Below, one piece after another: positions 8,565-37,661 of a DNA stretch of 37,661 bases. Origin of the DNA: a virus; IMG/VR virus record IMGVR_UViG_3300008448_000263, positions 1-37,661 of that record; one strand, 5' to 3'. Positions within the stretch are counted from its first letter, which is position 1. Each line of letters opens with the position of its first letter. Below the pieces are notes generated by a model. The model was not told the DNA's origin. It did no database searches and worked only from the letters and a program-made list of their open reading frames with translations. Position numbers and translations under genes: made by a program.

Positions 8565-8582
8565 ATAACCTCCTCAGGTTAT
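8565..8582 (-). promoter_or_regulatory. SD-sequestering hairpin before the tail tube gene
   Basis: The minus strand has ATAACCT, a GAGG loop, then AGGTTAT, a perfect 7-bp stem. The tube gene's SD (GAGGAGG) occupies the loop and right arm. The hairpin overlaps the first base of the sheath stop codon, so ribosomes terminating on the sheath could open it and couple tube synthesis to sheath synthesis. Confidence 0.5.
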
Positions 8583-14828: not shown

Positions 14829-15761
14829 TCATGCAAAGTCTGCACGGGCCAGAGAGTTGGTGTTGCCGATGGCTCCACCGAGGGTCTCATAGGCAAAGAA
14901 CTCCAACATGTAAGCCTTGCGCTCGATGTACATGGTGGTGTCTTCGAGCAAGTAGCTCTTGCCCATGAACTTGGGATCAGCAAACAGGTACATCGAGTCG
15001 CTGGGGACCAGATCCTGCTTGATGGTGACGATCCAGTTGGCGTTCATGAAGTTCTGCTCGGACCAGCCATTCTTGAAGAGGTCCTGGCTGAAGTCGCCGC
15101 CCATTTCTTCACGACCGAACTTCATGATCTCGCGGATCGTGAGGTTGTTCAGAAGAACGGTACCAGTCTCTAGACGAGAGATGGTGCGGGGCAGAATCTT
15201 GAAAGCGTCCTGGAGGGTATCACGGGTGATACCGCCGTACAGGGTTTCCCACTGAACGGTGCCAGAGTTGGGGTTAACGGTGTCGGCAGAGCCGCCGAGG
15301 CCAGCGTTAACAGCAGCCAAGAACTTGCGGTCTTCTTCAGCCAGCATGTCCTTGATTGAGTTGTCGCTTAGAACCTGACGGATGTCGATGTAATAAGTAC
15401 GCAGTTCGTCAACGTCCTTCGTGAAACGAGGGGTGACGATACGGTCGAAGCTAACGCGGTAGCGCTGGCCACGAATGTACAGGCTCATCGGCAAGGTAGC
15501 GAAGGGAATGCTGACAGCGGCAGGGGAGTCTGGCTCGCGGTCAACAATCTTCACTGGCTTGTCGGTATCAACCTGACGATCAAGATCGTCATTGCTGATC
15601 TGGACAGGTGGCAGAATGCGGCGATAGAAGCCTTCTTCACGCATTCTGTAACGGGTGAAGTCATTCACTGCGTCAAGCGCACGCTTCTCCATGCCTGGGG
15701 TCTCCAGGTAGGAGATAAAGGTCTCGTTGCGTAGCTTGACATCGTCATTAACGGATGCCAT
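14829..15761 (-). CDS. Major capsid protein, 310 aa
   Basis: The gene follows protease, scaffold-like and decoration-like genes in standard head-module order. The protein has a helical N-terminal arm (about 1-50), then a mixed alpha/beta body with ILPPVQISNDDLDRQV, SIPFATLPMSLYIRGQRYRV and FTKDVDELRTYYIDIRQVL, consistent with an HK97-fold capsid subunit. The end (EFFAYETLGGAIGNTN) fits the final strands of such proteins. I prefer ATG 15761 (MASVNDD), nine bases after GGAGG, over the in-frame TTG at 15767. The gene is GC-richer than the fibre region, as expected for a highly expressed protein, and is followed by a strong hairpin. No K-x-A-S motif is visible, so N-terminal processing, if any, would be elsewhere. 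Confidence 0.75.
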   Translation of the reverse strand: MASVNDDVKLRNETFISYLETPGMEKRALDAVNDFTRYRMREEGFYRRILPPVQISNDDLDRQVDTDKPVKIVDREPDSPAAVSIPFATLPMSLYIRGQRYRVSFDRIVTPRFTKDVDELRTYYIDIRQVLSDNSIKDMLAEEDRKFLAAVNAGLGGSADTVNPNSGTVQWETLYGGITRDTLQDAFKILPRTISRLETGTVLLNNLTIREIMKFGREEMGGDFSQDLFKNGWSEQNFMNANWIVTIKQDLVPSDSMYLFADPKFMGKSYLLEDTTMYIERKAYMLEFFAYETLGGAIGNTNSLARADFA

Positions 15762-15798
15762 GTTCAAAAACCTCCACGATTACCTTAGGGTTAAAAAC

Positions 15799-18193: not shown

Positions 18194-19672
18194 TTAAGCT
18201 AGGTAGTTGGAGCGTACGGCATGCTCTTTATACCAGCCAAAATTCGAGTCATTCTTGAGTTCGTTCAAGAAATATAACTGATACGTAGCATAACGTCTAG
18301 CTAACTGCTCTGCCTCGTCAGCCGAAGCTGTCTTGATCAGATCATTAGCTCTGCCTCTAAAACTGGCAGTTTTTACACCGCCAGCTTTTACGAACTGAGA
18401 CATAACTCTTCGTTCAAAGTTGTTTGTGGCTATAGACTTAGCTTCTGCAGTCTTCTTAGCCCAGCTGCTGATATTTTCTGATGGAAAAGCAGCAGAAGGA
18501 TCACAAACGCTTTCTGCGATGCAGTGCTCAAGGCTGCTGTGTTCAGAAATCATTCTGCTGAACACGCCAGGAAGTTTAGCCTCTATATCGGCTGCGCTGG
18601 CTGACTTAAGAACACCATTATCGAATCCAGAAGCAGCTACTACAGCCAGCCAGTCTTTTACGCTCAGGGCAACTTTTTCTCTGGCTAGGGCTCTCCACAC
18701 CTGCATGTTGGTGAGTACACCAGTAGGTATGTTGGACACGCTGGCAGTCTTATCGTTAAGAATGACCGCGTCTTTCATAGACGTTCCAAATTTTCCGTTT
18801 TCTAGATCTGATTCCAGATCGGCTAGCTCATAAGCAATTTTTACAAGCTGAGCTGTTTTTGGATCCATACTGTCAAATCGAAGACTGTAAGGCATCGTTA
18901 CGCCCATTTCTTCGGCAAGAAGGGCACCACCAACAGGCTGATTAGACGCAGCTTTAAGATGACCAAAGACATAAGCTATGCGGTCAGCTGGACGATACAC
19001 GTCGCTAATGTCGAACCATCTGGGTTCTGGATTATCAACATGCAGCACATGTCCGTCTTCAGCAACCTTGGTTAGGTTGTCCATGCAACCGCCGTACTTA
19101 CATGTTCTGTCTGTGCAGTACTGCGCACGGCTGGGAGCTTTGTTTCCACAGCCAGAGCATACGTCGTAAGGAACGGAACAGGCCATGCTTACAGCTAGCT
19201 CTTTGTTGTTAGCCAGCTTTTCCATTTCTTTGTCAGCTACCAGACCGCCGTTACGGTCTGCAGCTTCTTTTGTAGCGTTTAGAGCTACCAGCAATTCAAC
19301 GCGCTTCATCGCCTCGTTGAACGCCGACATCTTGATAACGCCATAACTTTTCGCTTGATCTTTATTTTGGTGGTTGCGGTACCAGCGCGCGTGCTTGACG
19401 AACGTAGGATGGTACTTGCGACAAGTCGCAGACTTGAAGCCATCTCCGTTACGGTTTGGGCCATAGGCCTCCGTAGATCCAATAGCAATAAGATGCACGA
19501 GCTGCTCACCTGGCGCGACGTGGACATCGCGAAGTTTATCAGCGAATTCATGGCCTGCTCTTTTTACGAATGAGCGAAGGTCGTCTCCGCGTAGACCTTT
19601 ATTAGACACCTTGACCATTTCGGTCTGTGCTATATCAAGGTTCTGCGCGCCAGGGGTGATGATCTTTATCAT
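18194..19672 (-). CDS. Putative prohead (head maturation) protease, 492 aa
   Basis: The N-terminal half has the pattern of phage prohead proteases. It shows GSTEAYGPNRNGDGF (65-79), then HPTFVKHARWYRNHQNKDQA with a conserved-looking His (H101), then the strand GVIKMSAFNEAMKRVELLVAL. Next comes Ser162 in AVSMACSVPYDVCSG. A His and Ser about 60 residues apart fit the His-Ser catalytic pair of this fold. Directly after Ser162 lies a cysteine cluster (C165, C172, C175, C186, C191, C196), probably a zinc-binding insertion. The C-terminal 200 residues are helical and carry KTAS three times and KSAS once, candidate self-cleavage sites. The gene sits just before scaffold and capsid genes. Start ATG 19672 has AAAGGTGA upstream. 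Confidence 0.7.
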   Translation of the reverse strand: MIKIITPGAQNLDIAQTEMVKVSNKGLRGDDLRSFVKRAGHEFADKLRDVHVAPGEQLVHLIAIGSTEAYGPNRNGDGFKSATCRKYHPTFVKHARWYRNHQNKDQAKSYGVIKMSAFNEAMKRVELLVALNATKEAADRNGGLVADKEMEKLANNKELAVSMACSVPYDVCSGCGNKAPSRAQYCTDRTCKYGGCMDNLTKVAEDGHVLHVDNPEPRWFDISDVYRPADRIAYVFGHLKAASNQPVGGALLAEEMGVTMPYSLRFDSMDPKTAQLVKIAYELADLESDLENGKFGTSMKDAVILNDKTASVSNIPTGVLTNMQVWRALAREKVALSVKDWLAVVAASGFDNGVLKSASAADIEAKLPGVFSRMISEHSSLEHCIAESVCDPSAAFPSENISSWAKKTAEAKSIATNNFERRVMSQFVKAGGVKTASFRGRANDLIKTASADEAEQLARRYATYQLYFLNELKNDSNFGWYKEHAVRSNYLA

Positions 19673-23365: not shown

Positions 23366-25813
23366 TTAGTCAGCTGTGTCGCTGAGGTCACCGCTGAAGC
23401 CTTCTTCTGGGAATGGCTCAACAGTCTTCTGCTTAAGGAACAGTACAACGTCGCCCACAGCTTCAAAAGCGTTTCTCAGAGACTCTTCCAGTTCTGGCAT
23501 GTCGCGCTTGCCGTAGCGCTCTTGCATTTCATCTCCGTGCCAGTAGAAGCTGAACAGAATTCTACCAAGCCTGTCTACGCCTTTCATCAAGTCGCCAAGA
23601 TACTTGTCCACGACAGAGTCACTACGAACGTTCTTTAGTAGTGAGCCGATCATGGTAGTGTCAAATACTTCCTTCTGGCCAGACTGTGCAGCTTGGTAGC
23701 CAAGAGCCATAGTCCTTGGGTCAGGCAACCGAGGGTCATAGATCTGCTCGTTACCTACCAAGTTAGCCGAAGTTGGAAGAACTGGCAGAGCTTCTTGCTG
23801 TGGGTAGATGGACTGAACGCTACCAAGCATGGTCTGCTCAAGACCAGAAGGAGGCGATGGGAAAGGAGGAGAGCCAGTGATTGACTGCATGGTCTGGTCG
23901 ATTGGATCGCCAGGAGCAGCTTGCTTGGCAAACTCTACTACATATTCAGGGAAGGCCACGCGGTAGTTGACTACCTTCTTGGCCTCTGCGTTGGCGATTA
24001 CAGCCTTGGCCTGCTTCTCACGCAGCATGAAGTTCTGAATCAGATGGGTCAGAGCGGCAATCTTGTCCATAGCCTTGCCGTTAATGCTGACTTCTGAGCC
24101 AGTATGGCGAACTTCCAAGCTGGAAGTCTTCTCAAAAATAGCCTTGTGTAGGTCTAGCTTGTTGCCATACTCCACAGCTGGCTTTTCGCTACGGTCGCCA
24201 TGACCTTCGTAGTCCTTGGCTAGCTCGATTACCTTCATGCCCTTTGGCACATAAAACTCACCATGAAGGTTACGCATGCGCCCACCTTCTTTATTGGTGA
24301 AGTGCATAATGTCGGAGCAGCCGCAGCCGTAGCCTTCGCAGTCTACGCCATAACCCCAGTAAGTTTCCTTGTTACGATCTTCCAACTTAGGCAGGTGAGC
24401 TGGACGGTCTGCTGAGGACCAGTCCTTGAACTCTACCTTGAAGCTGGTTGAGGCGTCGTCTTCCTGAATCTTCTCTTTAACAAGGAAAGGAGTGGTTCCT
24501 TCCTTGCCAGGAGCGATAAGGATATACAGACCACCTTCTTTCATGGCGCTTGGTTCAGCGTCCTTGAGGCTGTCAAACAGCTCTTTGTATTCGTCCTTGT
24601 CTACGGCTTTTTCTCTGGTGACTAGGTTACCAGGATGGATGTTAGTCCATTTCTTCTGGGAATCGTCTAGGTCGATAACAGTGGCAAAGTTTTTTGTGCC
24701 CTTGTTACCAACTGGTCCGTTGATTACCAGAGACTTGCAGAACGAACTGGGACGACAGAGTACGTCGTATATTCCAGTTTCTGTAGGACTTACTAGCTTA
24801 AGAGGCGTTTGGACCTCGTAAGCTATTGCGGTCTCTGGCCTTTCGTCGCGAACAGATATTCCGTCTGTAAGCAGCTCTTCTTTTTCTTTATCGGTTGGCT
24901 CAAAGCCAATACCACGCTGAGCCACAGTCTTAACGGTAAGAACGGCTACAGCTGCAGCCTTCTCACGCATGACTTTCTTTTCAACGTTGCCGTTGTAGGC
25001 TTCCATTACGCCCTTAGCGCGCTTTGGTGATTCGTCTTCTTCCTCTTCTCTATTTACTTGCTTCTGCTTTAGCCACTTAGGAGCCTTAGCTTCCTTTTGA
25101 GCAGCTTCAGCCATAGCTTGCTTGATGGTGTTCAGGTCGTAGAACTTGGAAATGGCTTCCCCGATAGCTGGGAACTGCTCAATACCCTTAAGCAGGCTGT
25201 GGACTACTTCCATACCAGCTTCTTTGAGGAAGTTAGGAAGAGTCAGGCCTTCTTCTGCTAGTGGGTTGCTAAGAGCGCAATAAGCAAAGGCAGCTTCGCC
25301 AGCTTCCATACCAGTAGCTGATGCAAACTTGGCTGGAGGACGAGAGAAGGCCTGCAGGTCTGGAGACAGCACACCCAGACGCTGAAGGTTACGGTCAGTC
25401 TTGTCGCCCATTACGTTGGGACGACGCTGAAGGATGTAGTTCAGCCAGTTCTCTTTGAGAGGAACGAACTGATCCTGGTCTTTTAGATACAGAAGCTCTG
25501 TACCCTTCATGTCGCCATTAAGGAAAAAGACAGGAGCATACAGCCACTGTCCACCAACCTTAAACCCAAAGATACCAATAGCTTTGGTGTTGTCTTCGTT
25601 ACGATCCATCAGCTGGAAACCGACCTCATAGTCCAGCAGTGATGGAGCTTTGTCTTTAACAAAGGCGTGAGCCAAGTTAGAGAAAGCTTGTTCAAACTGA
25701 GTGTCGTTACCGTCGCCGCCTAGAGTAGCCTTTTTCTCGAAGATGGAAATACCATCATTCATCAAGGAACGGCACTCGTTTAGATGGCGTTGTGTTTCTT
25801 TTGAAAGGGGCAT
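23366..25813 (-). CDS. Large head-region virion protein, 815 aa, unknown function
   Basis: The N-terminal 150 residues contain SLLDYEVGFQLMDRNEDN and IFGFKVGGQWLYAPVFFLNG, a mixed alpha/beta domain that resembles uncharacterised large-phage virion proteins as far as I can recall. Residues about 230-280 are highly charged. The middle has a cysteine cluster (VDCEGYGCGCSDIMHF) that may bind metal. Residues about 655-680 are Pro-rich, and the C-terminal 130 residues are helical with YLGDLMKGVDRLGRILFSFY. A K-x-A pair (EKKATLGG) follows the N-terminal helix, and KFAS and KQAA occur later. Its place before the protease gene would suit a portal, but I see no portal signature, so I leave the function open. 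ATG 25813 follows GAGGTG. Confidence 0.5.
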   Translation of the reverse strand: MPLSKETQRHLNECRSLMNDGISIFEKKATLGGDGNDTQFEQAFSNLAHAFVKDKAPSLLDYEVGFQLMDRNEDNTKAIGIFGFKVGGQWLYAPVFFLNGDMKGTELLYLKDQDQFVPLKENWLNYILQRRPNVMGDKTDRNLQRLGVLSPDLQAFSRPPAKFASATGMEAGEAAFAYCALSNPLAEEGLTLPNFLKEAGMEVVHSLLKGIEQFPAIGEAISKFYDLNTIKQAMAEAAQKEAKAPKWLKQKQVNREEEEDESPKRAKGVMEAYNGNVEKKVMREKAAAVAVLTVKTVAQRGIGFEPTDKEKEELLTDGISVRDERPETAIAYEVQTPLKLVSPTETGIYDVLCRPSSFCKSLVINGPVGNKGTKNFATVIDLDDSQKKWTNIHPGNLVTREKAVDKDEYKELFDSLKDAEPSAMKEGGLYILIAPGKEGTTPFLVKEKIQEDDASTSFKVEFKDWSSADRPAHLPKLEDRNKETYWGYGVDCEGYGCGCSDIMHFTNKEGGRMRNLHGEFYVPKGMKVIELAKDYEGHGDRSEKPAVEYGNKLDLHKAIFEKTSSLEVRHTGSEVSINGKAMDKIAALTHLIQNFMLREKQAKAVIANAEAKKVVNYRVAFPEYVVEFAKQAAPGDPIDQTMQSITGSPPFPSPPSGLEQTMLGSVQSIYPQQEALPVLPTSANLVGNEQIYDPRLPDPRTMALGYQAAQSGQKEVFDTTMIGSLLKNVRSDSVVDKYLGDLMKGVDRLGRILFSFYWHGDEMQERYGKRDMPELEESLRNAFEAVGDVVLFLKQKTVEPFPEEGFSGDLSDTAD

Positions 25814-29285: not shown

Positions 29286-31193
29286 TCAAAGAACGCCAGT
29301 GCTCTCGTTAGGCTTAGCTATTTCTTTAGGGTCAAAGCCTTTTATTTTTCCGCTTTGACCGAAACCTACAGACTTGGCTAGAGAAGGTACAAAAGATGTA
29401 CCAGACTCATCAGCTATGCCTCCAGCCCACACGCTTTTTAGCGTGCCCTTCTGTAGATTGGACCCCAACATTCTTGTCATCCAATCTGGATCATACTGCA
29501 AATTGTCCAAACCTCGCAAGAAGTGAGGCTCAAATGGAGGAGGCTCTTGGTGAGCTGTAACCTCCTTAATGCCAAACTCATCTAGTTCCTTGATTACTGA
29601 CGGCGTAAGCCTGGTACCTACGCTGTAGTGAAGAGTAGGTCGTTCTAGGTATCGGTTACGAAGATTCTTGGGTGCGCCAACTTGATAACCGTCTCTAGGC
29701 TTCCAGCTGCGCTCAAACATGTCATAAGGAATCACATCTTCTGGCATGTTCTCCCCAACTTCGTCAGTAAGACGAATATGGTTGATAAGCCCTCTGGAGA
29801 GAACTTCTATATTACGTCTGTTAGCTCCAAGCCCAGCATCTTGCATGGACTTCCTGAAAGCATTAACAAACTGCCTTCGGCCTTCGCCTAGTCCTTTGTG
29901 TCTTACGAACTCCGCTGGGTTTGGTACACCGTCAGTCAATATGTCCCCAGCTTCTACCTCATCTCCAACTTTGTAATTTATTGCAGCGTCAGGGTTTACG
30001 TAATGCTGCATGCCTTTGATAGTTAAAAAATAGCCGCCTGTTGGAGCTGGCTTGATCTCGTCAATCTTGCCGTCTGCCTGAGCGTGGGTAGCCCAGTACG
30101 GAGATTGCTTTGGAGATTGAATTAGCTGGTTAAGGACTTTAAACCCAGAGATGGACTTACCACCAGCCACGCCACCTGAGTGTTTGGAAGATAGAGTGCC
30201 TTGGCTGATAGGCTCGCCTAGCGCTTGCGCTGCAGCGATGCCAACAAAGTCGCCAGTCCCAGGAAGGCCGCCACGTTCACGTATTCCCACATCTCTCGCA
30301 TACAGCCCACCGTCTGGTGATCCCATAGCTACAGGACTTCTGACAGCTATTCTCTTAACGCCAAGGTCTTGAATAGCCTTCATTACCTTGGGAGTAAGAA
30401 CTGTATTTCTTTTATAGGGACCCACTGGAATAGCTAAAAGAGCGCCTTCGTTATCTGGGTCGTCTACGTCTACTGGCATGCCTCTGGTAGCCGCGTACTC
30501 GTCATCTTCAGCGTCCCTGCCTGTGACGATTAGTCTGTGGCCTAGCTGGTTAAGTTGTTTGGAGAAAAACCCAGAGTGCTGTACAGCAAACTTGGTATCT
30601 ACCACACCCTTACGAGCGCCGAAGCTGCCAGCAAAGTACTCAGCTGGAGTAAGCCCAGAGCTAAACGAGTTAAGCACTGGAATAGGAATGGCTCTATCAC
30701 GGTGATCGGTGTAGAGCAGGTCACCGCCACGTAGAGACTTGAGGTTACCAGGTTTACCTCTAGAGCCTGACAATACCTGAAGAGCCAAGGGGTTCTGCTC
30801 AGCCTTGGACTCTTCCATAATGTCTTTTTCTAGCTTTGACTGGTAGCCGAGCACAGTCTCGATAATTTTGTCGTTTTTAGCCTTATCGTCAAGAAGTGGG
30901 TTGCGCTGAATGTCTCGAACTTTAGCTTTTATTTCTAAATTAGCTTTCTTAGCTGACACAGCTGTGCTGAGAGAGTCCAAACCAAACGAGAAGCCACCAG
31001 TTGTATAGGCTACATCTCTGCCTACATCAAACATTTTCTTTAGAACTGGTCTGTAGTTGTCTGGATCGTTCTCTGCTATGTCCTGAAGAATTTTCTGTAC
31101 GGTCTTACCGTCCATAACGCGATTGTAATCGCGGTACTTCTCTGGAAGCGCCTCGTTTACAAGGAGTTGTCCTATGGTGGCTTTAACTGGCAT
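29286..31193 (-). CDS. RNA polymerase beta-prime subunit, C-terminal part, 635 aa
   Basis: Aligned by eye to E. coli RpoC. It starts at the segment matching TTVGRAILW (here KATIGQLLVNEALP). The bridge helix follows (GLTPAEYFAGSFGARKGVVD, 180-199), then the trigger loop VGIAAAQALGEPISQGT then LSSKHSGG (317-341) with His338 matching RpoC His936. After that come GDEVEAGDILTDGVPNPAEF and NRRNIEVLSRGLINH, which match the region before the RpoC C-terminus. The four zinc-binding Cys before the trigger loop are replaced (SPVAMGSPDGGLYARDVG). The end differs from RpoC. With the N-terminal part encoded at 36497-37661 it would rebuild one active site. No clear SD precedes ATG 31193. Confidence 0.9.
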   Translation of the reverse strand: MPVKATIGQLLVNEALPEKYRDYNRVMDGKTVQKILQDIAENDPDNYRPVLKKMFDVGRDVAYTTGGFSFGLDSLSTAVSAKKANLEIKAKVRDIQRNPLLDDKAKNDKIIETVLGYQSKLEKDIMEESKAEQNPLALQVLSGSRGKPGNLKSLRGGDLLYTDHRDRAIPIPVLNSFSSGLTPAEYFAGSFGARKGVVDTKFAVQHSGFFSKQLNQLGHRLIVTGRDAEDDEYAATRGMPVDVDDPDNEGALLAIPVGPYKRNTVLTPKVMKAIQDLGVKRIAVRSPVAMGSPDGGLYARDVGIRERGGLPGTGDFVGIAAAQALGEPISQGTLSSKHSGGVAGGKSISGFKVLNQLIQSPKQSPYWATHAQADGKIDEIKPAPTGGYFLTIKGMQHYVNPDAAINYKVGDEVEAGDILTDGVPNPAEFVRHKGLGEGRRQFVNAFRKSMQDAGLGANRRNIEVLSRGLINHIRLTDEVGENMPEDVIPYDMFERSWKPRDGYQVGAPKNLRNRYLERPTLHYSVGTRLTPSVIKELDEFGIKEVTAHQEPPPFEPHFLRGLDNLQYDPDWMTRMLGSNLQKGTLKSVWAGGIADESGTSFVPSLAKSVGFGQSGKIKGFDPKEIAKPNESTGVL

Positions 31194-31216
31194 ATCTGTG
31201 TACCCGCGTGTAGTAT

Positions 31217-31627
31217 TTAAGCCAGAGCTTGAGCAGCTTCTTTTTTACTTATTATGCCAAGAGCAACCATAGCCTGAACACCAGCAATTGTTCTTGGATC
31301 TGTTAGAACAATCTCGTCAGCTGCCAACATCTTGTCATACCACAATTTAACTAAGTCGTTTGATTTGGTGGCTGTAACTACTTTTAGTTGAGTTTCTTGG
31401 CTAAACCTTTCCATAAACTGCAGTGAAGACAGCTTCTCTACCCCACTAGACGGTGGGGCAGGAAAGTCTAGACCTAGCAAGTCTATTTGCGCTTCGCACT
31501 CTTCTTCGGTAGCAGCTTCAAAAATGCTATGTATCGATTCAGTCAACCCTTCTGACTCAAATAGTGATATAACAGTGCTGCCGTCGTGAACAAGACGCCA
31601 ACTTTTTGCTGGACCAACTACAGGCAT
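31217..31627 (-). CDS. Small fibre-associated protein, 136 aa, uncharacterised
   Basis: An alpha/beta protein with KLSSLQFMERFSQETQLKVV (about 65-84) and an ending VLTDPRTIAGVQAMVALGII. Endings of the type DPRT-x-x-G-x-Q-A occur in small proteins next to tail fibre genes in other phages, to my recollection. Here too it directly follows the LRR fibre gene with a 15-base gap. A role in fibre assembly or as a fibre-linked cap is plausible. The ATG at 31627 has GGAGT upstream. Confidence 0.45.
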   Translation of the reverse strand: MPVVGPAKSWRLVHDGSTVISLFESEGLTESIHSIFEAATEEECEAQIDLLGLDFPAPPSSGVEKLSSLQFMERFSQETQLKVVTATKSNDLVKLWYDKMLAADEIVLTDPRTIAGVQAMVALGIISKKEAAQALA

Positions 31628-31642
31628 CGCTAATACTCCGTA

Positions 31643-33220
31643 CTAGTTGTGCGTTACAGTACAGCCTCTTGCCACCAGCGTCGCCTTGGCAGCAAGACCT
31701 GTGGCTGAAGGGGTAGCGCTTGTACCACCAGATAGGTTAACCGTTCTGCTGCTATAGGCAGGGTATGGAGCGTTGTTAGTTCCATCCATATAAGCCAACG
31801 CTACGAGAATGCCATCGACAGAAGCTTGGTTAAGCGCAGCTCCTGTGCATATAAAATTACCGCCATAATTCATTGGAGTTTGTTTAACTGTAAAAGTCGT
31901 CAGGGCAGCGCAGTTTGTTACATTGAAAGAAATGCTATTAGACGCGCCAGCAAATTCTAAGTTAGGCAGGTTTATAGTTGTCAACATAGGTGAGTTTGTT
32001 ACAGCGAACTGGCCTCCGTCAGTAGTGTAGCCAGTTGGAGTAGTTGAAGAATTGTTTGCCCAAGTAGGCTTCACCAGACCCCATTTTGTAAAGCTAGGTA
32101 AGCTTATAGTGGTTAAAACATTAAACGTTATTGGACTGTTCTGCCCTGCGCCAAAAGGCGAATTAAGTGTTTTTTTCAATAATGGAAAATTCATAGAAGT
32201 GAGGTAAGGCGCACTTGCCCAAAACCCTGTTGTGTAGTTAGCAATGCTGCCAGTGTACAGCAACTTAGGAAAGTTTAGAGTTTGAGCATAGACATGGTTA
32301 AGAATCATACCTCCAAAATTATGTAAAAGCTCAGGAAAAGAAATGCTTACAAGAGAAGAAGACGCGCCGAGGTAAATTGAATCTGCTGCTTTTAACTTAG
32401 GAAAATTAACAGTAGTTAAAGACGGAAATAGATCCGCTGTGCCTGCAAAATTGGTAATTTGAATTTCGCCTAATTCGGCTTCTGGTGCTGAAACCGACTG
32501 CACTACAGAATACGTGTTATACAAGTATACTTTGCAAAATTTTGCTTTTGGAATACTTATGTTTTGAATAAATTTTCCAGTATTATTACCAGTTCCAGCG
32601 TATAAAAATACTTCCTCGGCTTCTGGAATACTTATTGACGCAAGCCTAGGACAGTTATTGTTGTTTAGATATATTTTTTTGGCGTTTGGAAAAGAAAGAG
32701 ATGTTAGGTTATAAAATTCATAAAAATTTCCTGAAAATTGGTCTAATAGCCAAGTAATGCTTGTAGTATTTGAAGTTTGATCGTGATCTGGTTGTGCTTG
32801 AAAAGTAACATTTCCGCCAATTTTTCCGTTAAGACTATTTTGCTGTAATTGTTGAAGCCCGTACAAAGGCTGATTCCAACCGCTATATGAAAGCTGCCCA
32901 TTGTAATAGCATCTGAATAATTCTATGTTTGGATTAGTTATGGCTGGAGTGATTTGAAAAGCTCCAGAGCTGCCAAAACTAGATACTCCGTTACTTATAA
33001 CCTCAGCAATAGACGCTTTACCAGCCACGCCAGTCGTAGCGTCGTTTACTATCAAGGTGTCTTGAGGTACAGGCGTTTTAGTTGTCAGCTGAGATCCAGT
33101 GTTTAGTATTTGAGCTGCCGTGCTTTTGCCAGTCTGCCCATTAAACGGATCAGCCACTGCCAACACATCTGTAGATGATGGTGTTCTGGGAGCCAACTCA
33201 TTAATTGGTTTTACTGCCAC
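31643..33220 (-). CDS. Tail fibre protein with leucine-rich repeats, 525 aa
   Basis: The N-terminus (INELAPRTPSSTDVLAVADP, then GKSTAAQIL) has the look of a fibre attachment domain, and two similar copies of it follow each other (about 5-40 and 48-75). Residues about 165-420 contain repeats of the BspA-like leucine-rich type, such as LTSLSFPNAKKIYLNNN, RLASISIPEAEEVFLYA and LTTVNFPKLKAADSIYL. The last 65 residues (QASVDGILVALAYMDG, VNLSGGTSATPS, ARGCTVTHN) match the usual end of LRR fibres. It is probably a receptor-binding fibre. The gene is clearly AT-richer than the capsid and sheath genes, suggesting recent exchange. Start is a GTG at 33220 with GAGGAT upstream. It sits between the two RNA polymerase pieces. 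Confidence 0.7.
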   Translation of the reverse strand: MAVKPINELAPRTPSSTDVLAVADPFNGQTGKSTAAQILNTGSQLTTKTPVPQDTLIVNDATTGVAGKASIAEVISNGVSSFGSSGAFQITPAITNPNIELFRCYYNGQLSYSGWNQPLYGLQQLQQNSLNGKIGGNVTFQAQPDHDQTSNTTSITWLLDQFSGNFYEFYNLTSLSFPNAKKIYLNNNNCPRLASISIPEAEEVFLYAGTGNNTGKFIQNISIPKAKFCKVYLYNTYSVVQSVSAPEAELGEIQITNFAGTADLFPSLTTVNFPKLKAADSIYLGASSSLVSISFPELLHNFGGMILNHVYAQTLNFPKLLYTGSIANYTTGFWASAPYLTSMNFPLLKKTLNSPFGAGQNSPITFNVLTTISLPSFTKWGLVKPTWANNSSTTPTGYTTDGGQFAVTNSPMLTTINLPNLEFAGASNSISFNVTNCAALTTFTVKQTPMNYGGNFICTGAALNQASVDGILVALAYMDGTNNAPYPAYSSRTVNLSGGTSATPSATGLAAKATLVARGCTVTHN

Positions 33221-33230
33221 GGCACAATCC

Positions 33231-33455
33231 TCAGATTGTTATTTCTTTGACTTCATTGCGTTGTTCTATGCCGAACTGCTTGAGAAGTCTTTTAAATTCT
33301 TCGTTCTCACCAGGCTTAGCTTTATAGACAGCTATGGTGTTGTTGTCGTATTCAATAGCCAAAAGAATAGGCTGGCCAAAGTTATCCTTTATGACCAGCC
33401 TATTCGCTTCTACTGATACTGAGTTGAACAAGCCATTGTTAAACTCAAGTTTCAC
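33231..33455 (-). CDS. Small beta-rich protein, 74 aa, uncharacterised
   Basis: Starts at GTG 33455 with AGAGGT six bases upstream. The first half is beta-like (MKLEFNNGLFNSVSVEAN, then LVIKDNFGQPILLAIEYD); the second half is a charged helix ending in EVKEITI. An 11-bp inverted repeat lies within the coding sequence. It is tucked between a low-complexity protein and the fibre gene. No family is named. Confidence 0.5.
   Translation of the reverse strand: MKLEFNNGLFNSVSVEANRLVIKDNFGQPILLAIEYDNNTIAVYKAKPGENEEFKRLLKQFGIEQRNEVKEITI
33365..33405 (-). repeat. 11-bp perfect inverted repeat inside a small gene
   Basis: GAATAGGCTGG and CCAGCCTATTC are separated by 19 bases, within codons of the 74-aa gene. 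The repeat would form a hairpin in the message. No T tract follows on the minus strand. It may be a structural RNA element or chance. Confidence 0.5.
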
Positions 33456-33457
33456 GT

Positions 33458-34165
33458 TTACCTCTTTCTGCTTAGAGCATTCAGCATGTGACGAGCAGCT
33501 TCTGCCTTCTCTGACAAGCTAGCCTGTTTTCCACCAATCGGCTCAATTGGCTTGATTGGAGAAATGCCAGAGATGTCAGAAGCTGTAGGAGGAGCTTCTT
33601 GCTTGCCTTCTCCACCTTCAGCGCCTTCTTCAGGAGCTGCTGGCTTGTCAAGAATGTTGTAAGGAAGGCTTAGGCCCAGACTTTCGTACAGATTGATAAG
33701 CAGCTTCTGCTGCCTTTCCATGTACTCAAGCAACTGAGCTGGGTCCACCTTGGCAGAGCCTTTGCTCTTAGGCTTGCCACCGTTCTCACCACCGCCAGTC
33801 ATAGCCTTCTGGATTTCTTCCTGAATCAGCTGCTTGATCATAGCTGGATCAGTGCCAGAAGGAGGAGCTGGGGGTGCGCCACCCATAAGGGATGGGTCCA
33901 TGGGAGGCATGGGAGGCGCACCACCCATAGCGGCTGGATCCATTGGAGGAGCCCCACCCATCATTGCTGGGTCCATGGGAGGAGCGCCGCCCAGCATAGC
34001 TGGATCCATAGGAGGAGCGCCGCCTGGAGACATTCCACCCATAGCTGCTGGATCCATGGGAGGCGCACCACCTGCTGGAGGAGCGCCACCGCCTGGAGGA
34101 ACAAAAGCTTGCTTGGAGGCCAGAGCTTGCTTTACGTTCCTAATCAGAATTGAGTTAAGAGGCAT
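33458..34165 (-). CDS. Low-complexity GGAPPMDP-repeat protein, 235 aa
   Basis: The preferred start is ATG 34165 with AAGGGTG upstream; the GTG nine bases earlier would overlap that SD. The N-terminus SILIRNVKQALASKQAFVPP resembles those of the two preceding proteins. Residues about 32-108 are tandem units GGAPPMDPAxM of about 11 residues. Residues 110-180 contain KQLIQEEIQKAM and a charged linker. The end has GGKQASLSEKAEAARHMLNA, including a KQAS tetrapeptide. A flexible virion-internal or scaffold-like protein is the best guess. No enzyme signature is seen. Confidence 0.5.
   Translation of the reverse strand: MPLNSILIRNVKQALASKQAFVPPGGGAPPAGGAPPMDPAAMGGMSPGGAPPMDPAMLGGAPPMDPAMMGGAPPMDPAAMGGAPPMPPMDPSLMGGAPPAPPSGTDPAMIKQLIQEEIQKAMTGGGENGGKPKSKGSAKVDPAQLLEYMERQQKLLINLYESLGLSLPYNILDKPAAPEEGAEGGEGKQEAPPTASDISGISPIKPIEPIGGKQASLSEKAEAARHMLNALSRKR
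33842..34072 (-). repeat. Coding tandem repeat, about 33-bp units (GGAPPMDPAxM)
   Basis: About six imperfect units encode GGAPPMDPA followed by AM, ML or MM. The DNA copies differ mainly at third positions, as expected for a repeat kept at the protein level. Unit lengths of 11 to 16 residues occur near the ends. Such repeats can change copy number by slippage. Confidence 0.8.
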
Positions 34166-34179
34166 GTGTTTCACCCTTC

Positions 34180-35295
34180 TTAGTAGTTGCGACCGCCTGA
34201 AGTCCTAGCTGGAGGCACAGCCAAAGAACCAGCGTTACTTGGAATTACCGCATTAGTGACATTTTTCAAAACGTTAACAGGCGGCGCTGCTGGTCTGCCA
34301 GGAGCATTACGATTGTAGCTAAAACCGCCTGCGCCCATGCCGCCAGTCGCTTGGCCTACTGCTTTTGCTATAGGTGAGTTTATAGCGTCAAGAGTAACAC
34401 GCTTACCTTGGTCGGCTGCGTTACCTGCTGTAAAAGCAGCAGCGTCGTAGGCATTGCTAGCGGCATTTTGAATACCCACTCCAACGTTGCCAGCAGCGTT
34501 TACTACGTTATTGGCAGCGTTAGAAACTAGGTTTCTAGGGTTGATTGAATAAGGGTCAGTGTTTGACCCAAAGCTAGGACCAACGCTGCCTGCAGTAAGC
34601 GGCACAGTGCCTTCTGTCAGCGATCTAAACTGAGGAGCTGGTCTGAATGGAATACCTCTGTCGTAAGGCTTGGGGGTTGGCGCTGAGGGAGCTGCTTTAG
34701 GGGTTTGCGCAGCTGCCATCTGAGCGCGAATATTTCTAGCTTCTTCAATAGCCTTGTCCATTGGAGAAGGGCCTTGAGGAATTTTTGCTCTAGAAGCAGC
34801 CATCTGCTGTTCTTGATGCTGCCTATAGGCCGTAGGACTAACTGGTTGAGTAGCTGGAGCTGCAGGGGCTACGCGCTGTCCAGGTTTAATGCCTAGCGAC
34901 CCAGCGTCTCCACCAGCTACATAAGCAGAAGCTGCGTTTTGGTCTGGGGCGTAGAACACTTCGCCAGTCTGAGAGTGGCGGAAGCGCTGCATGCCTGCTG
35001 GAGCTGGCTGATACATAGCTCTGCTGGCTGCAGTATCTTCAGAAGGCAAAGGACCTTGGTCATATGGACTTGAAGGAGCCTGGACTGGAGCCTGCGCTGG
35101 AGCTTGAGCTGGAGCAGCGGCTCTTTGTTGATTAGCGTAATAAGCCTGCCTTCTACCAGGAAGAATAGGCACACCTCTTGGACTTATAATCCCAAAAGGA
35201 CCAGCCAACTTTATTAAGCCTATCTCTGTGCCTGCTCTCTTAGCGTTAAGACAAGCTTGTTTTACATGACCAATTAGCTTTTTGTCGATTGCCAT
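34180..35295 (-). CDS. Leader-bearing disordered protein ending in GGRNY, 371 aa
   Basis: The likely start is ATG 35295 (MAIDKK) with AGGAG seven bases upstream; the ATG at 35325 would place a promoter-like sequence and the SD inside the gene. The N-terminus KKLIGHVKQACLNAKRAG is helical, followed by IKLAGPFG. The body is rich in Ala, Pro, Gln and Gly, with a beta-like patch MQRFRHSQTGEVFYAP near residue 100 and a segment with SNAANNVVNAAGNVGVGIQN. The last residues SGGRNY repeat those of the preceding protein (GGGRNY). The paired similarity at both ends suggests paralogues or shared sorting tags. Function unknown; proposed virion-internal. Confidence 0.5.
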   Translation of the reverse strand: MAIDKKLIGHVKQACLNAKRAGTEIGLIKLAGPFGIISPRGVPILPGRRQAYYANQQRAAAPAQAPAQAPVQAPSSPYDQGPLPSEDTAASRAMYQPAPAGMQRFRHSQTGEVFYAPDQNAASAYVAGGDAGSLGIKPGQRVAPAAPATQPVSPTAYRQHQEQQMAASRAKIPQGPSPMDKAIEEARNIRAQMAAAQTPKAAPSAPTPKPYDRGIPFRPAPQFRSLTEGTVPLTAGSVGPSFGSNTDPYSINPRNLVSNAANNVVNAAGNVGVGIQNAASNAYDAAAFTAGNAADQGKRVTLDAINSPIAKAVGQATGGMGAGGFSYNRNAPGRPAAPPVNVLKNVTNAVIPSNAGSLAVPPARTSGGRNY

Positions 35296-35323
35296 CGTAG
35301 TCTCCTGTGTAAGGCGTGAATAC

Positions 35324-35352
35324 ATTATTGCTCAGAAGTACCTAGCTGTCTA
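35324..35352 (-). promoter_or_regulatory. Sigma-70-like promoter TAGACA-N17-AATAAT
   Basis: The minus strand carries TAGACA (five of six), 17 bases, then AATAAT (five of six), with start expected near 35317, about 22 bases before the ATG at 35295. It lies in the gap after the 373-aa gene. This is the best host-type promoter match I found in the window. Confidence 0.55.
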
Positions 35353-35364
35353 TAACGCTTGATG

Positions 35365-36486
35365 CTAGTAGTTTCTGCCACCGCCTACTGGCTTGGCTGT
35401 AGAAACAGCAGGCAAATTAGGAGTTACAGGCTTGGGAGCAGACTGCTGAACAGGAGCAGCTGGCTTAGCTGCGTTAACGTCAGTTCTGCTAAACCTTCTG
35501 TCCAACATAGGTGCGCCTGCGTCCATATGGGAAGCTGGGCTGTATGGGATGTTAGGTTTGGTAGCAGGCTTGTTTGGGTCTACCCGTGGGTAGAAGCCTC
35601 CGTATCCTCTGTCAGCGTATGGAAACGCTTTTAAAGAATTAGCCGCTGTTTGCCCTAAGGTCGTTGGTAGTGAGTTTGTTACTACAGGCTTAGAGGGCGT
35701 AGCGTAACCCATTACTGCTCTTAATGGCAAAGACGAGGCCCAGGCTGTAGGGCCGTAACCCCATCTTCCTTCAGAATTTCGCAATTTTTCAATATTGTCT
35801 CTATAGTTTTTAAACTTGCTATGCGCTTCTTCATAGGTAACGTTGGGGTTTTTTCTCATATAATGAGTTGCTGCGTCTATTCCACTAATATATAACTTTT
35901 GACCTATTGCGTTGTTTACTTCTTTCAAGGTTTGTGGAATTTCTTGTAACTTTTTCTTAAAAGGGTAAAAAGTATTATTGTACCATTCGTTGTCTCTCAT
36001 CATATTAGTAGCATTACGCCAGTCTGTGCCTCTAGGAGCATCCCCAGTTTGGTATTCGTAATAGCGTTCTGCTAGGTCTTGTGGGTCAATAAGATTAGCG
36101 TCACGCATTAAAAAGTCTAAATTACGTTCTGGTTTTATTGTTTCTTCGTATTCTTTCATAGCCTCAGGTACGTCGTTAAAATCTTGGCGAGGTCTGAGGT
36201 TGTATTTTTCCCTAAGATTTCTCATTAACGAGTAAGGATTAGGCTGGGTGATTGGTACGTCTTTCCAGTCTGCCTCCAGCTTGTCCTTAGCCCTATCTTT
36301 TAAAAGACGTTCAGTAACGTCTCTGCGCATGCCGCTTTGAGGATCAATAGCAGCTGGCTGCTCTGGCTCCAAATACTCAGGCCTAACATAAGGCTTTTCT
36401 CCTGTTACTTCTTCTGGAGGCACAGGAGCAGCTAGCTTGTGCATGGCTTTTTTAATTTGACCAATAAGCTTGTAGTTAAAAGCCAT
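35365..36486 (-). CDS. Leader-bearing protein ending in GGRNY, 373 aa
   Basis: Start ATG 36486 (MAFNYKLIG) with GAGGAC upstream is preferred to the TTG six bases earlier. The N-terminus KLIGQIKKAMHKLAAPVPP mirrors the next two proteins. Residues about 60-250 are helical and charged, with many Arg/Asn/Tyr. Examples are RDNEWYNNTFYPFKKKLQ and VTYEEAHSKFKNYRDNIEKL, which suggest a folded domain. The C-terminal 120 residues are Pro/Ala rich and end in VGGGRNY. It directly follows the beta-prime N-terminal part, four bases after its stop, so the two are translated from one message. No family is recognised. Confidence 0.5.
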   Translation of the reverse strand: MAFNYKLIGQIKKAMHKLAAPVPPEEVTGEKPYVRPEYLEPEQPAAIDPQSGMRRDVTERLLKDRAKDKLEADWKDVPITQPNPYSLMRNLREKYNLRPRQDFNDVPEAMKEYEETIKPERNLDFLMRDANLIDPQDLAERYYEYQTGDAPRGTDWRNATNMMRDNEWYNNTFYPFKKKLQEIPQTLKEVNNAIGQKLYISGIDAATHYMRKNPNVTYEEAHSKFKNYRDNIEKLRNSEGRWGYGPTAWASSLPLRAVMGYATPSKPVVTNSLPTTLGQTAANSLKAFPYADRGYGGFYPRVDPNKPATKPNIPYSPASHMDAGAPMLDRRFSRTDVNAAKPAAPVQQSAPKPVTPNLPAVSTAKPVGGGRNY

Positions 36487-36496
36487 AACCAAGTCC

Positions 36497-37661
36497 TCAA
36501 TTCAATATCACTACTTTCTGGTCTGACTCAATTTCACCGTTCTTATAAGCTCTTATTGCGTCAGCCTTTGTAGCAAAGTATCTCTCTGGTTTATTAGACA
36601 CGAAAGCTGTGGCGTGATACAGACCACCTTGGTACTCGTTCTTAGGCAGCTGGTGAGCCTTGAAGTTCTTGGTGCTCAGCAGGTTCTTGCTGGGCAGCAT
36701 CTTCTCAAGAGCGTCCTTAACAGCTCCGTCAGAGACAGGAACGTGATAGTTCATCGTGTCTCCATCGAAGTCTGCACCAAAGCCAGTAACGATAGCTGGA
36801 GGAATCTGTAGAGTCTCAGCCTTGGTCAGCTGGGGCCTGAATGCCATTACGCCATACCTGTGAAGCACAGGTGCGCGAGTGATGATAACTGGACGCTCGT
36901 CCATCTCCTGTAGCAGAGCGTCCTTAGCTGCCTTATCCTTCTGCTCTACTAGCTCAGCAGCTCTAATAGGGGCAACGCCTCTACGCGCCAACCTTCGTAC
37001 GATGAATGGCTTGTAGATTTCCCAAGCCTTGCTCTCAGGCAGACCTACTTGGTCCATGTCCAAGTCTGGGTTAGGTGTAATAACACCTCTACCCACCACG
37101 TCTACAGTCGTACTAAGCAGCTTGCGCTGCATGGTGGAGAACTTGGGGTTATCTCCAAAGATGTACTTGAGTACGCCTTTGACCTGCCTCTCCTGGTTCT
37201 TGGGGCTTACTGGATCCCCCAACCCAGTAACAGCCTTGAAGCTCTTATAGAGCGCAGTACGCTCATCGCTTAAGTTGTTGCTGAAACCTGAAGTTTCTTT
37301 TAGCGCTTCGTTAGCCTCAAACGCCTCTTTGTACAGATAGTTGGCATCTGCTACGAGGGGCCTGCCTGTAGCTCCCATGACGGACACAGGCCTGAAAGCT
37401 GGAGGAAGAACAGGAATCTTGTCCATCATCCATTCCGATGGGCTTAGTCCAAGCTTGGCCGAATGCTTGAGCACAGACCAACGCTTGAGGGCAGCATCCT
37501 TTGTGGACTTTCTGCCATTACGCCATTCGTACTCAGCTTCTCTGGTAGCTTTCTCTAGGTTTATATTACTAAGCGCGTTCTTGATGGCTTGTGGGCCAGT
37601 CTGGTCGCCAATCGTGTCCTTACCAGCAAGAATATCCATGAACTTGTTCTTGGTAAGGCCC
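36497..37661 (-). CDS. RNA polymerase beta-prime subunit, N-terminal part (5' end outside window)
   Basis: Open through the window edge; 387 codons are visible, and Met at 37639 is internal. Aligned by eye to E. coli RpoC. LSPSEWMMDKIPVLPPAFRP matches the PEWM-x-x-x-VLPVLPPDLRP segment. VVGRGVITPNPDLDMDQVGL matches the SGRSVITVGP region. ERPVIITRAPVLHRYGVMAF matches the NRAPTLHRLG motif. GFGADFDGDTMNYHVPVSD holds the three catalytic Asp (D290, D292, D294 counted from that Met; codons within 36758-36772), which bind the active-site magnesium. The frame ends after VVILN, just where the separately encoded C-terminal part takes up the alignment. Phage-encoded multisubunit polymerases with split subunits are known from phiKZ-like and AR9/PBS1-like jumbo phages. 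Confidence 0.92.
   Translation of the reverse strand, partial: GLTKNKFMDILAGKDTIGDQTGPQAIKNALSNINLEKATREAEYEWRNGRKSTKDAALKRWSVLKHSAKLGLSPSEWMMDKIPVLPPAFRPVSVMGATGRPLVADANYLYKEAFEANEALKETSGFSNNLSDERTALYKSFKAVTGLGDPVSPKNQERQVKGVLKYIFGDNPKFSTMQRKLLSTTVDVVGRGVITPNPDLDMDQVGLPESKAWEIYKPFIVRRLARRGVAPIRAAELVEQKDKAAKDALLQEMDERPVIITRAPVLHRYGVMAFRPQLTKAETLQIPPAIVTGFGADFDGDTMNYHVPVSDGAVKDALEKMLPSKNLLSTKNFKAHQLPKNEYQGGLYHATAFVSNKPERYFATKADAIRAYKNGEIESDQKVVILN

What the first reader, a model, noticed from the sequence alone, without database searches (positions are those of the whole stretch)
29286..37661. RNA polymerase beta-prime is split into two genes by a 5.3-kb block of seven virion-like genes
The N-terminal piece carries the catalytic DFDGD loop and ends after VVILN. 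The C-terminal piece begins at the next conserved block (KATIGQLLVNEALP). By eye, little or nothing of the conserved core is missing between them, so this looks like a true gene split and not decay. Seven genes, including an LRR tail fibre, lie between. Split beta-prime is known in phiKZ-like and AR9-like phages, but a fibre and leader-bearing proteins between the halves suggests either gene shuffling around a break or a virion-packaged polymerase.
Basis: partly seen in the sequence, partly recalled or inferred. Interest (0 to 1): 0.75.

Follow-up and report, generated by a model that had tools for sequence, protein, structure and literature searches.

The report
Phage polymerase: one fusion, one break
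This tailed virus of bacteria encodes a cell-like RNA polymerase that has been cut and pasted: the whole beta subunit is joined to the front half of beta-prime, the back half of beta-prime is a separate gene a few virion-type genes away, and relatives carry the same enzyme as one, two, three or four genes, so it shows how such an enzyme is taken apart.

Summary
Both halves are real, conserved beta-prime pieces, and only a roughly 17-residue variable loop is absent between them. The window ends inside the N-terminal gene. In an overlapping contig, identical over 18,373 nt, and in relatives, that gene is an in-frame fusion of beta with beta-prime-N, about 1,455-1,545 aa. So the enzyme is two polypeptides, beta-beta'N and beta'C.

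The split is at the same place in every split relative aligned. The space between the halves is never empty: 614 nt to about 14 kb, median 979 nt; 5,303 nt here. A conserved ~74-80-aa gene lies there in 71 of 79 distinct gaps and a Pro/Met-rich gene in at least 63. It is a recurrent insertion zone, not shuffling around a fresh break.

Salmonella phage Arash has the same layout. Published virion proteomics found its beta-beta'N to be the most detected protein and beta'C also abundant (PMC10585845), which favours a virion polymerase.

New here: the same enzyme exists as one gene (2,077 aa, in two assemblies), two, three, or four or more genes. The one-gene form branches first, which suggests stepwise fission. 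Long branches weaken the direction.

The parts
36497..37661 (-). 3' part of the beta-beta'N fusion gene (beta'-N domain, DFDGD at 36758-36772; ends ...DQKVVILN); gene continues beyond the window
   Evidence: Pfam PF00623/PF04997; identical overlapping contig L005/L006 continues into beta
35365..36492 (-). 375-aa protein of unknown function in the gap, N-terminus MAFNYKLIGQIKKAMHKLA
   Evidence: ORF; leader-like N-terminus only weakly similar to the conserved 238-aa family (E 0.22)
34180..35325 (-). 381-aa protein of unknown function in the gap, with a similar-looking N-terminus (MAIDKKLIGHVKQA) by eye
   Evidence: ORF; no Pfam or PHROG match
33458..34174 (-). 238-aa Pro/Met-rich protein with a leader-like N-terminus; conserved between the halves
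   Evidence: family found in 63 of 79 distinct gaps by iterated HMM; divergent members likely missed
33231..33455 (-). 74-aa small protein conserved between the halves, usually next to beta'C
   Evidence: family found in 71 of 79 distinct gaps
31643..33220 (-). 525-aa fibre-like repetitive protein, inserted in this lineage
   Evidence: PHROG 34853 on its C-terminus, E 3.6e-5; no such gene in the gap of its relative L009
31217..31627 (-). 136-aa protein of unknown function just before beta'C
   Evidence: ORF; only a sub-threshold Pfam match
29286..31193 (-). beta'C gene, 635 aa (bridge helix about 30543-30653, trigger loop about 30171-30245)
   Evidence: Pfam PF04998; profile match to bacterial beta', E about 1e-71; AlphaFold2 model pLDDT 78.8 with best PDB matches bacterial beta', E 4e-25
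23366..25813 (-). 815-aa virion protein homologue (Arash gp218, a virion protein)
   Evidence: phmmer E 2e-13 to Arash; gp218 has 1149 spectra in virions
18194..19672 (-). 492-aa homologue of Arash gp222 (virion protein)
   Evidence: phmmer E 5e-33
14829..15767 (-). probable major capsid protein, 312 aa
   Evidence: 32% identity to Arash MCP gp226, E 2e-47; PHROG major head protein E 4.5e-4
8582..11344 (-). tail sheath protein, 920 aa (contractile tail)
   Evidence: PHROG 279 tail sheath, E 6e-9

Best explanation
The virus makes one cell-type RNA polymerase from two polypeptides: a beta-beta'N fusion of about 1,480 aa that carries both double-psi barrels, including DFDGD and the beta lysine region, and a separate beta'C of about 635 aa that supplies bridge helix and trigger loop. 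They must join in trans after translation, because no intein, intron or trans-splicing signature lies at the break here. The core is probably packed in the virion together with neighbouring virion proteins and ejected with the DNA to transcribe early genes. The split arose once, before the split members diverged, from a fully fused one-gene enzyme, by a break in a variable loop of beta'; the gap was then occupied by two conserved genes and became an insertion zone. Shown: split, fusion, conserved site, conserved gap genes, one-gene relatives. Shown for a relative only: presence in virions. Inferred: assembly in trans, ejection, early transcription, direction of evolution.
For: Domains. The fusion reads on in DNA identical to the window. 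The split point is aligned across members, with only a variable loop missing. 77 distinct gaps. Conserved gap genes. No group I intron or other Rfam match in the window. One beta and one beta'C per record in 10 records. Arash virion spectra: beta-beta'N 3516 (2.31 per residue), beta'C 1210 (2.00 per residue), compatible with about equal amounts. Collinear virion cluster and MCP homology with Arash. One-gene form in two assemblies. Trees put it outside all others.
Against: Virion presence is published for Arash only, about 22-30% identical, and the Arash authors note it may be carry-over of an abundant enzyme. No promoter or initiation factor is identified: a sigma factor was found in Arash and D69 but not in the window's closer relatives. 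Direction of evolution rests on L195, a long branch that may be drawn towards the bacterial outgroup. In a few relatives the halves lie far apart or beta is also broken, so linkage is not required.
Confidence: 0.72

Rival explanations
1. The same two-polypeptide enzyme, but acting as a non-virion polymerase made late in infection; its presence in Arash virions is carry-over of an abundant protein.
For: The Arash authors raise this possibility; many metabolic enzymes also appear in their virion list.
Against: Both parts are among the most detected proteins, the fusion above every other protein, with similar counts per residue; the genes lie inside the virion gene cluster, right after the portal gene in Arash.
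Confidence: 0.15
2. The split was caused by a mobile element (homing endonuclease, intein or intron) that inserted in beta' and later decayed, leaving two genes.
For: Relatives carry intein/LAGLIDADG inserts in these very genes (L187, L199). In L026 an intein-like/LAGLIDADG ORF abuts the beta'N stop codon, with TnpB and another endonuclease in the gap. In Vibrio phage 150E35-1 beta' is interrupted while its relative 1.031.O is intact, with a weak group I intron match.
Against: No such signature in the window and no recognised element in the usual short gap; L026 could be a later insertion into an existing gap.
Confidence: 0.3
3. The multi-gene forms are primitive and the one- and two-gene forms are later fusions, as argued for jumbo-phage polymerases as pre-LUCA relics (PMC7824862).
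For: Four-gene forms exist in the family; the position of the one-gene form is uncertain because of long branches.
Against: The four-gene member is nested among two-gene members, the three-gene member is sister to two-gene members, and the one-gene member branches first; the rest of the beta' protein closely follows bacterial RpoC.
Confidence: 0.15
4. The beta' gene is decaying or the gap is an assembly artefact.
For: One same-species contig has a 181-nt deletion in beta'C and a gap of about 74 nt in beta, both out of frame.
Against: The window and a second contig are identical and intact over 18 kb; the layout recurs in more than 70 distinct loci; both halves are under purifying selection.
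Confidence: 0.01

Closest known systems
Salmonella phage Arash gp206/gp216 and Vibrio phage D69 (VPHD69_0261/0264)
   Same: beta-beta'N fusion, separate beta'C, same split point, virion cluster; Arash parts found in virions (PMC10585845)
   Different: Annotated only as beta and beta' or hypothetical; the fusion and split are not mentioned in the passages of the Arash paper that were read. They have sigma factors. Different gap genes, some antisense in Arash
phiKZ/AR9-type jumbo-phage vRNAP and nvRNAP
   Same: Cell-type polymerase in several pieces; beta' broken in the connector after the catalytic barrel (PMC7598289)
   Different: There beta is also split and there are two polymerases per phage; AR9's beta'C starts about 65 residues further upstream and its beta'N ends about 35-40 residues earlier; one polymerase and fused beta-beta'N here
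Cyanobacterial RpoC1/RpoC2 split beta'
   Same: Break in the same connector
   Different: Cyanobacterial RpoC2 starts about 13-20 residues downstream, after the TTxGQLL block; the phage break lies before it; beta is not fused there
mReC, multi-subunit RNAP-encoding Caudovirales (Weinheimer and Aylward 2020, PMC7481178)
   Same: Metagenomic tailed phages with beta and beta' recognisably like cellular ones
   Different: The paper's main text does not mention split or fused subunits in its phages; its capsids match PF07068, which is absent from all records tested here
crAss-like phage and P23-45 single-chain virion polymerases (PMC10770324)
   Same: Virion polymerase with both barrels in one chain
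   Different: Those are a distant clade with almost no sequence similarity to cellular enzymes; this one is close to bacterial beta/beta'

Membership tests
Bacterial-type multisubunit RNA polymerase core (beta/beta') | Catalytic DFDGD, beta GDKxxGRxGxKG region, bridge helix, trigger loop | tested here: met
   Motif alignment, Pfam, fold match
Bacterial-type multisubunit RNA polymerase core (beta/beta') | N-terminal zinc-binding domain of beta' | tested here: not met
   Cys cluster missing in every phage member aligned
phiKZ/AR9-type jumbo-phage RNAP | beta split into two or more polypeptides | tested here: not met
   beta intact and fused to beta'N in nearly all relatives, and its visible part fused to beta'N in the window's overlapping contig; only a few distant relatives have split beta
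phiKZ/AR9-type jumbo-phage RNAP | Two polymerases per genome (virion and non-virion) | tested here: not met
   One beta and one beta'C in each of 10 records; contigs may be incomplete and a very divergent second enzyme could be missed
phiKZ/AR9-type jumbo-phage RNAP | Same beta' split position | tested here: not met
   AR9 split lies some 40-65 residues upstream
Cyanobacterial-type RpoC1/RpoC2 split | Split after the TTxGR block | tested here: not met
   Profile coordinates against 8syi, 8gzg, 8h3v
mReC | Tailed phage with beta and beta' recognisable by cellular models | tested here: met
mReC | Major capsid protein of family PF07068 | tested here: not met
   No match in 9 records at E up to 1
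mReC | RNAP placed in the published mReC clade | not testable with these tools
   Supplementary contig lists and sequences of that paper could not be read
Virion RNA polymerase | Polymerase present in purified particles | not testable with these tools
   Shown only for the homologue in Arash (PMC10585845)

The most novel reading that the evidence does not exclude
A lineage of phages whose single, bacterial-type, probably virion-packaged polymerase exists today as one, two, three and four or more genes, and so records stepwise fission of a fused enzyme; this would show that multi-piece phage polymerases can be derived by fission and need not be relics older than the last common ancestor of cells.
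Probability: 0.5. Interest if true: 0.8.

Novelty: new variant of a known kind. Interest (0 to 1): 0.66.

Why it matters
Why phages carry cell-type RNA polymerases in several pieces, and whether the pieces are primitive or derived, is an open dispute. Here one lineage holds the enzyme fully fused, fused-and-split, and in three or four or more pieces, with one break point kept, so the question can be tested by phylogeny and biochemistry. It also offers a two-polypeptide core with no phage alpha subunit recognised, in which the fusion of beta to beta'N may replace the assembly platform, and an isolate (Arash) on which virion function can be tested.

Tried and rejected
Group I intron at the split: no Rfam match in the window. 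Split intein: the N-piece ends directly after VVILN and the C-piece starts directly at the conserved block, leaving no room for intein halves. A second complete beta' in the genome: one only in each of 10 records. Identity of split site with AR9 or cyanobacteria: near but different. mReC capsid marker PF07068: absent. Assembly artefact: rejected by the identical contig. Several 'phage' records hit by the searches (e.g. Enterococcus phage Efs 1-1-1, Acinetobacter MD-2021a, Salmonella contigs) carry bacterial-type rpoB/rpoC and look like host contamination; they were used only as outgroups. A shared leader in all gap proteins: only partly supported. Literature searches for a described beta-beta'N fusion with separate beta'C found none in the open library.

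Full report
What was checked. The N-piece runs off the window (36497-37661, minus strand) and carries DFDGD at 36758-36772. The C-piece (29286-31193, minus strand, 635 aa) begins MPVKATIGQLLVNEALP. Pfam calls them RNA_pol_Rpb1_2 and RNA_pol_Rpb1_5. The block between is 5,303 nt and holds six annotatable genes, not seven.

Is anything missing between them? In a MAFFT alignment with Salmonella RpoC and relatives, the N-piece ends at the strand matching RpoC VRI and the C-piece starts at the block matching TTVGRA. Only a variable loop of about 17 residues is absent. Bridge helix and trigger loop are present. The AlphaFold2 model of the C-piece (mean pLDDT 78.8) has bacterial beta-prime as its best solved matches, E about 4e-25; predicted viral structures score lower. 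Both halves are under purifying selection: dN 0.11-0.20 with dS near or past saturation.

The N-piece is a fusion. In relatives with more upstream DNA, the gene is 1,455-1,545 aa in most members and contains beta domains followed by beta-prime-N. For the window's own virus this is direct: contig IMGVR_UViG_3300008110_000054 is identical to the window over 18,373 nt and its N-gene reads on upstream into beta without a stop (827 aa, open). The start of beta in this exact virus is not seen intact; a third same-species contig has a gap of about 74 nt there against its relative.

Survey. Two profile searches of IMG/VR gave 276 and 110 confirmed stretches, of which 79 and 77 loci were kept. Of 77 distinct gaps measured in the viral loci plus Arash and D69, the shortest is 614 nt, the median 979 nt and the longest 9.3 kb; L026 has about 14 kb. 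The window has one of the longer gaps. A small protein of about 74-80 aa lies in 71 of 79 gaps and the Pro/Met-rich leader-type protein in 63 of 79. These two are old occupants; the fibre-like gene is an extra in this lineage. In L026 the gap has taken in homing-endonuclease and TnpB genes, and an intein-like ORF directly abuts the beta-prime-N stop.

The split site compared. Cyanobacterial RpoC2 starts about 13-20 residues further downstream, on the other side of the TTxGQLL block. AR9 beta-prime-C starts about 65 residues further upstream and AR9 beta-prime-N ends earlier. So the same connector is broken at three different points, which suggests independent breaks. The jumbo-phage review calls the phage and cyanobacterial sites common (PMC7598289); at this resolution the present family does not share either.

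The one-gene form and the series. Contig IMGVR_UViG_3300029267_004201 (L195) encodes beta, beta-prime-N and beta-prime-C in one 2,077-aa frame; a second contig from another dataset repeats residues 1-1812, including the junction, at 100%. G011 has three genes, G012 four or more, and G016 and G017 look similar with inteins. In G014 the two genes are 82 kb apart. In trees the one-gene form is outside all others (SH-aLRT 99); the four-gene member is nested among two-gene members and the three-gene member is sister to the two-gene members of the Arash group. Forcing L195 with the Arash group is rejected (p-AU 0.002). These are quick trees; L195 has a long branch and may be drawn to the outgroup, so direction is likely but not proven.

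Function. The gene cluster is a virion cluster: tail sheath, a capsid protein homologous to the Arash MCP, and homologues of Arash gp218 and gp222. In the Arash paper gp206, the fusion, is the protein with most spectra (3516) and gp216, the C part, has 1210 against 1333 for the capsid protein (PMC10585845). Per residue that is 2.31 and 2.00, compatible with roughly equal amounts; spectral counts are only a rough guide. No search was aimed at a phage alpha subunit, and none was recognised in passing; sigma was found only in Arash and D69. The working model is a two-chain core packed in the head and ejected to transcribe early genes; the fusion may do part of what alpha does as an assembly platform. 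Packaging in the window's virus, trans assembly and early transcription are inferred.

Novelty. Phage multisubunit polymerases, split beta-prime and fused single-chain phage polymerases are all known. A bacterial-type enzyme with beta fused to beta-prime-N, beta-prime-C separate, and one- to four-gene relatives was not found described in the open papers searched, which do not cover subscription journals. It is rated a new variant of a known kind.

Noticed in passing
L195:5534-11767 and L201: A single 2,077-aa open frame holds beta, beta'N and beta'C; the junction is repeated at 100% identity in a second assembly.
   Followed up: yes
L187, L199, L058, L102, L105, L141, L200: In-frame inserts in the polymerase genes of relatives, at conserved positions; intein/LAGLIDADG domains confirmed in L187 and L199 (several in L187), not recognised by Pfam in L105.
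   Followed up: partly
L026:11176-16777 / L048: Gap of about 14 kb between the halves, with an intein-like LAGLIDADG ORF overlapping the beta'N stop, a TnpB/Cas12f-like gene and a second LAGLIDADG ORF.
   Followed up: partly
L021-L023, L078, L081: beta'C carries an extra C-terminal extension of about 600 aa, Pro-rich and virion-protein-like in L021.
   Followed up: no
L036:6533-11335 versus L033:6380-10171: Vibrio phage 150E35-1 has beta' interrupted near DFDGD by about 1 kb with a weak group I intron match; its relative 1.031.O has an intact beta' gene.
   Followed up: partly
L004/L007/L065 (contig IMGVR_UViG_3300008108_000260): A same-species contig has a 181-nt deletion in beta'C relative to the window and a gap of about 74 nt in beta relative to L008, both out of frame; cause unknown, possibly assembly.
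   Followed up: partly
Arash gp217 (L030:22731-24149): A DNA helicase encoded directly after beta'C is as abundant per residue in Arash virions as the polymerase.
   Followed up: no
window 26329-29223: 964-aa protein after beta'C has a DUF6321-type domain near its C-terminus, shared by many phage protein families.
   Followed up: no
L119, Arash, D69, L195 versus the window clade: Cysteines of the second beta' zinc site appear kept in these members and lost in the window clade.
   Followed up: no
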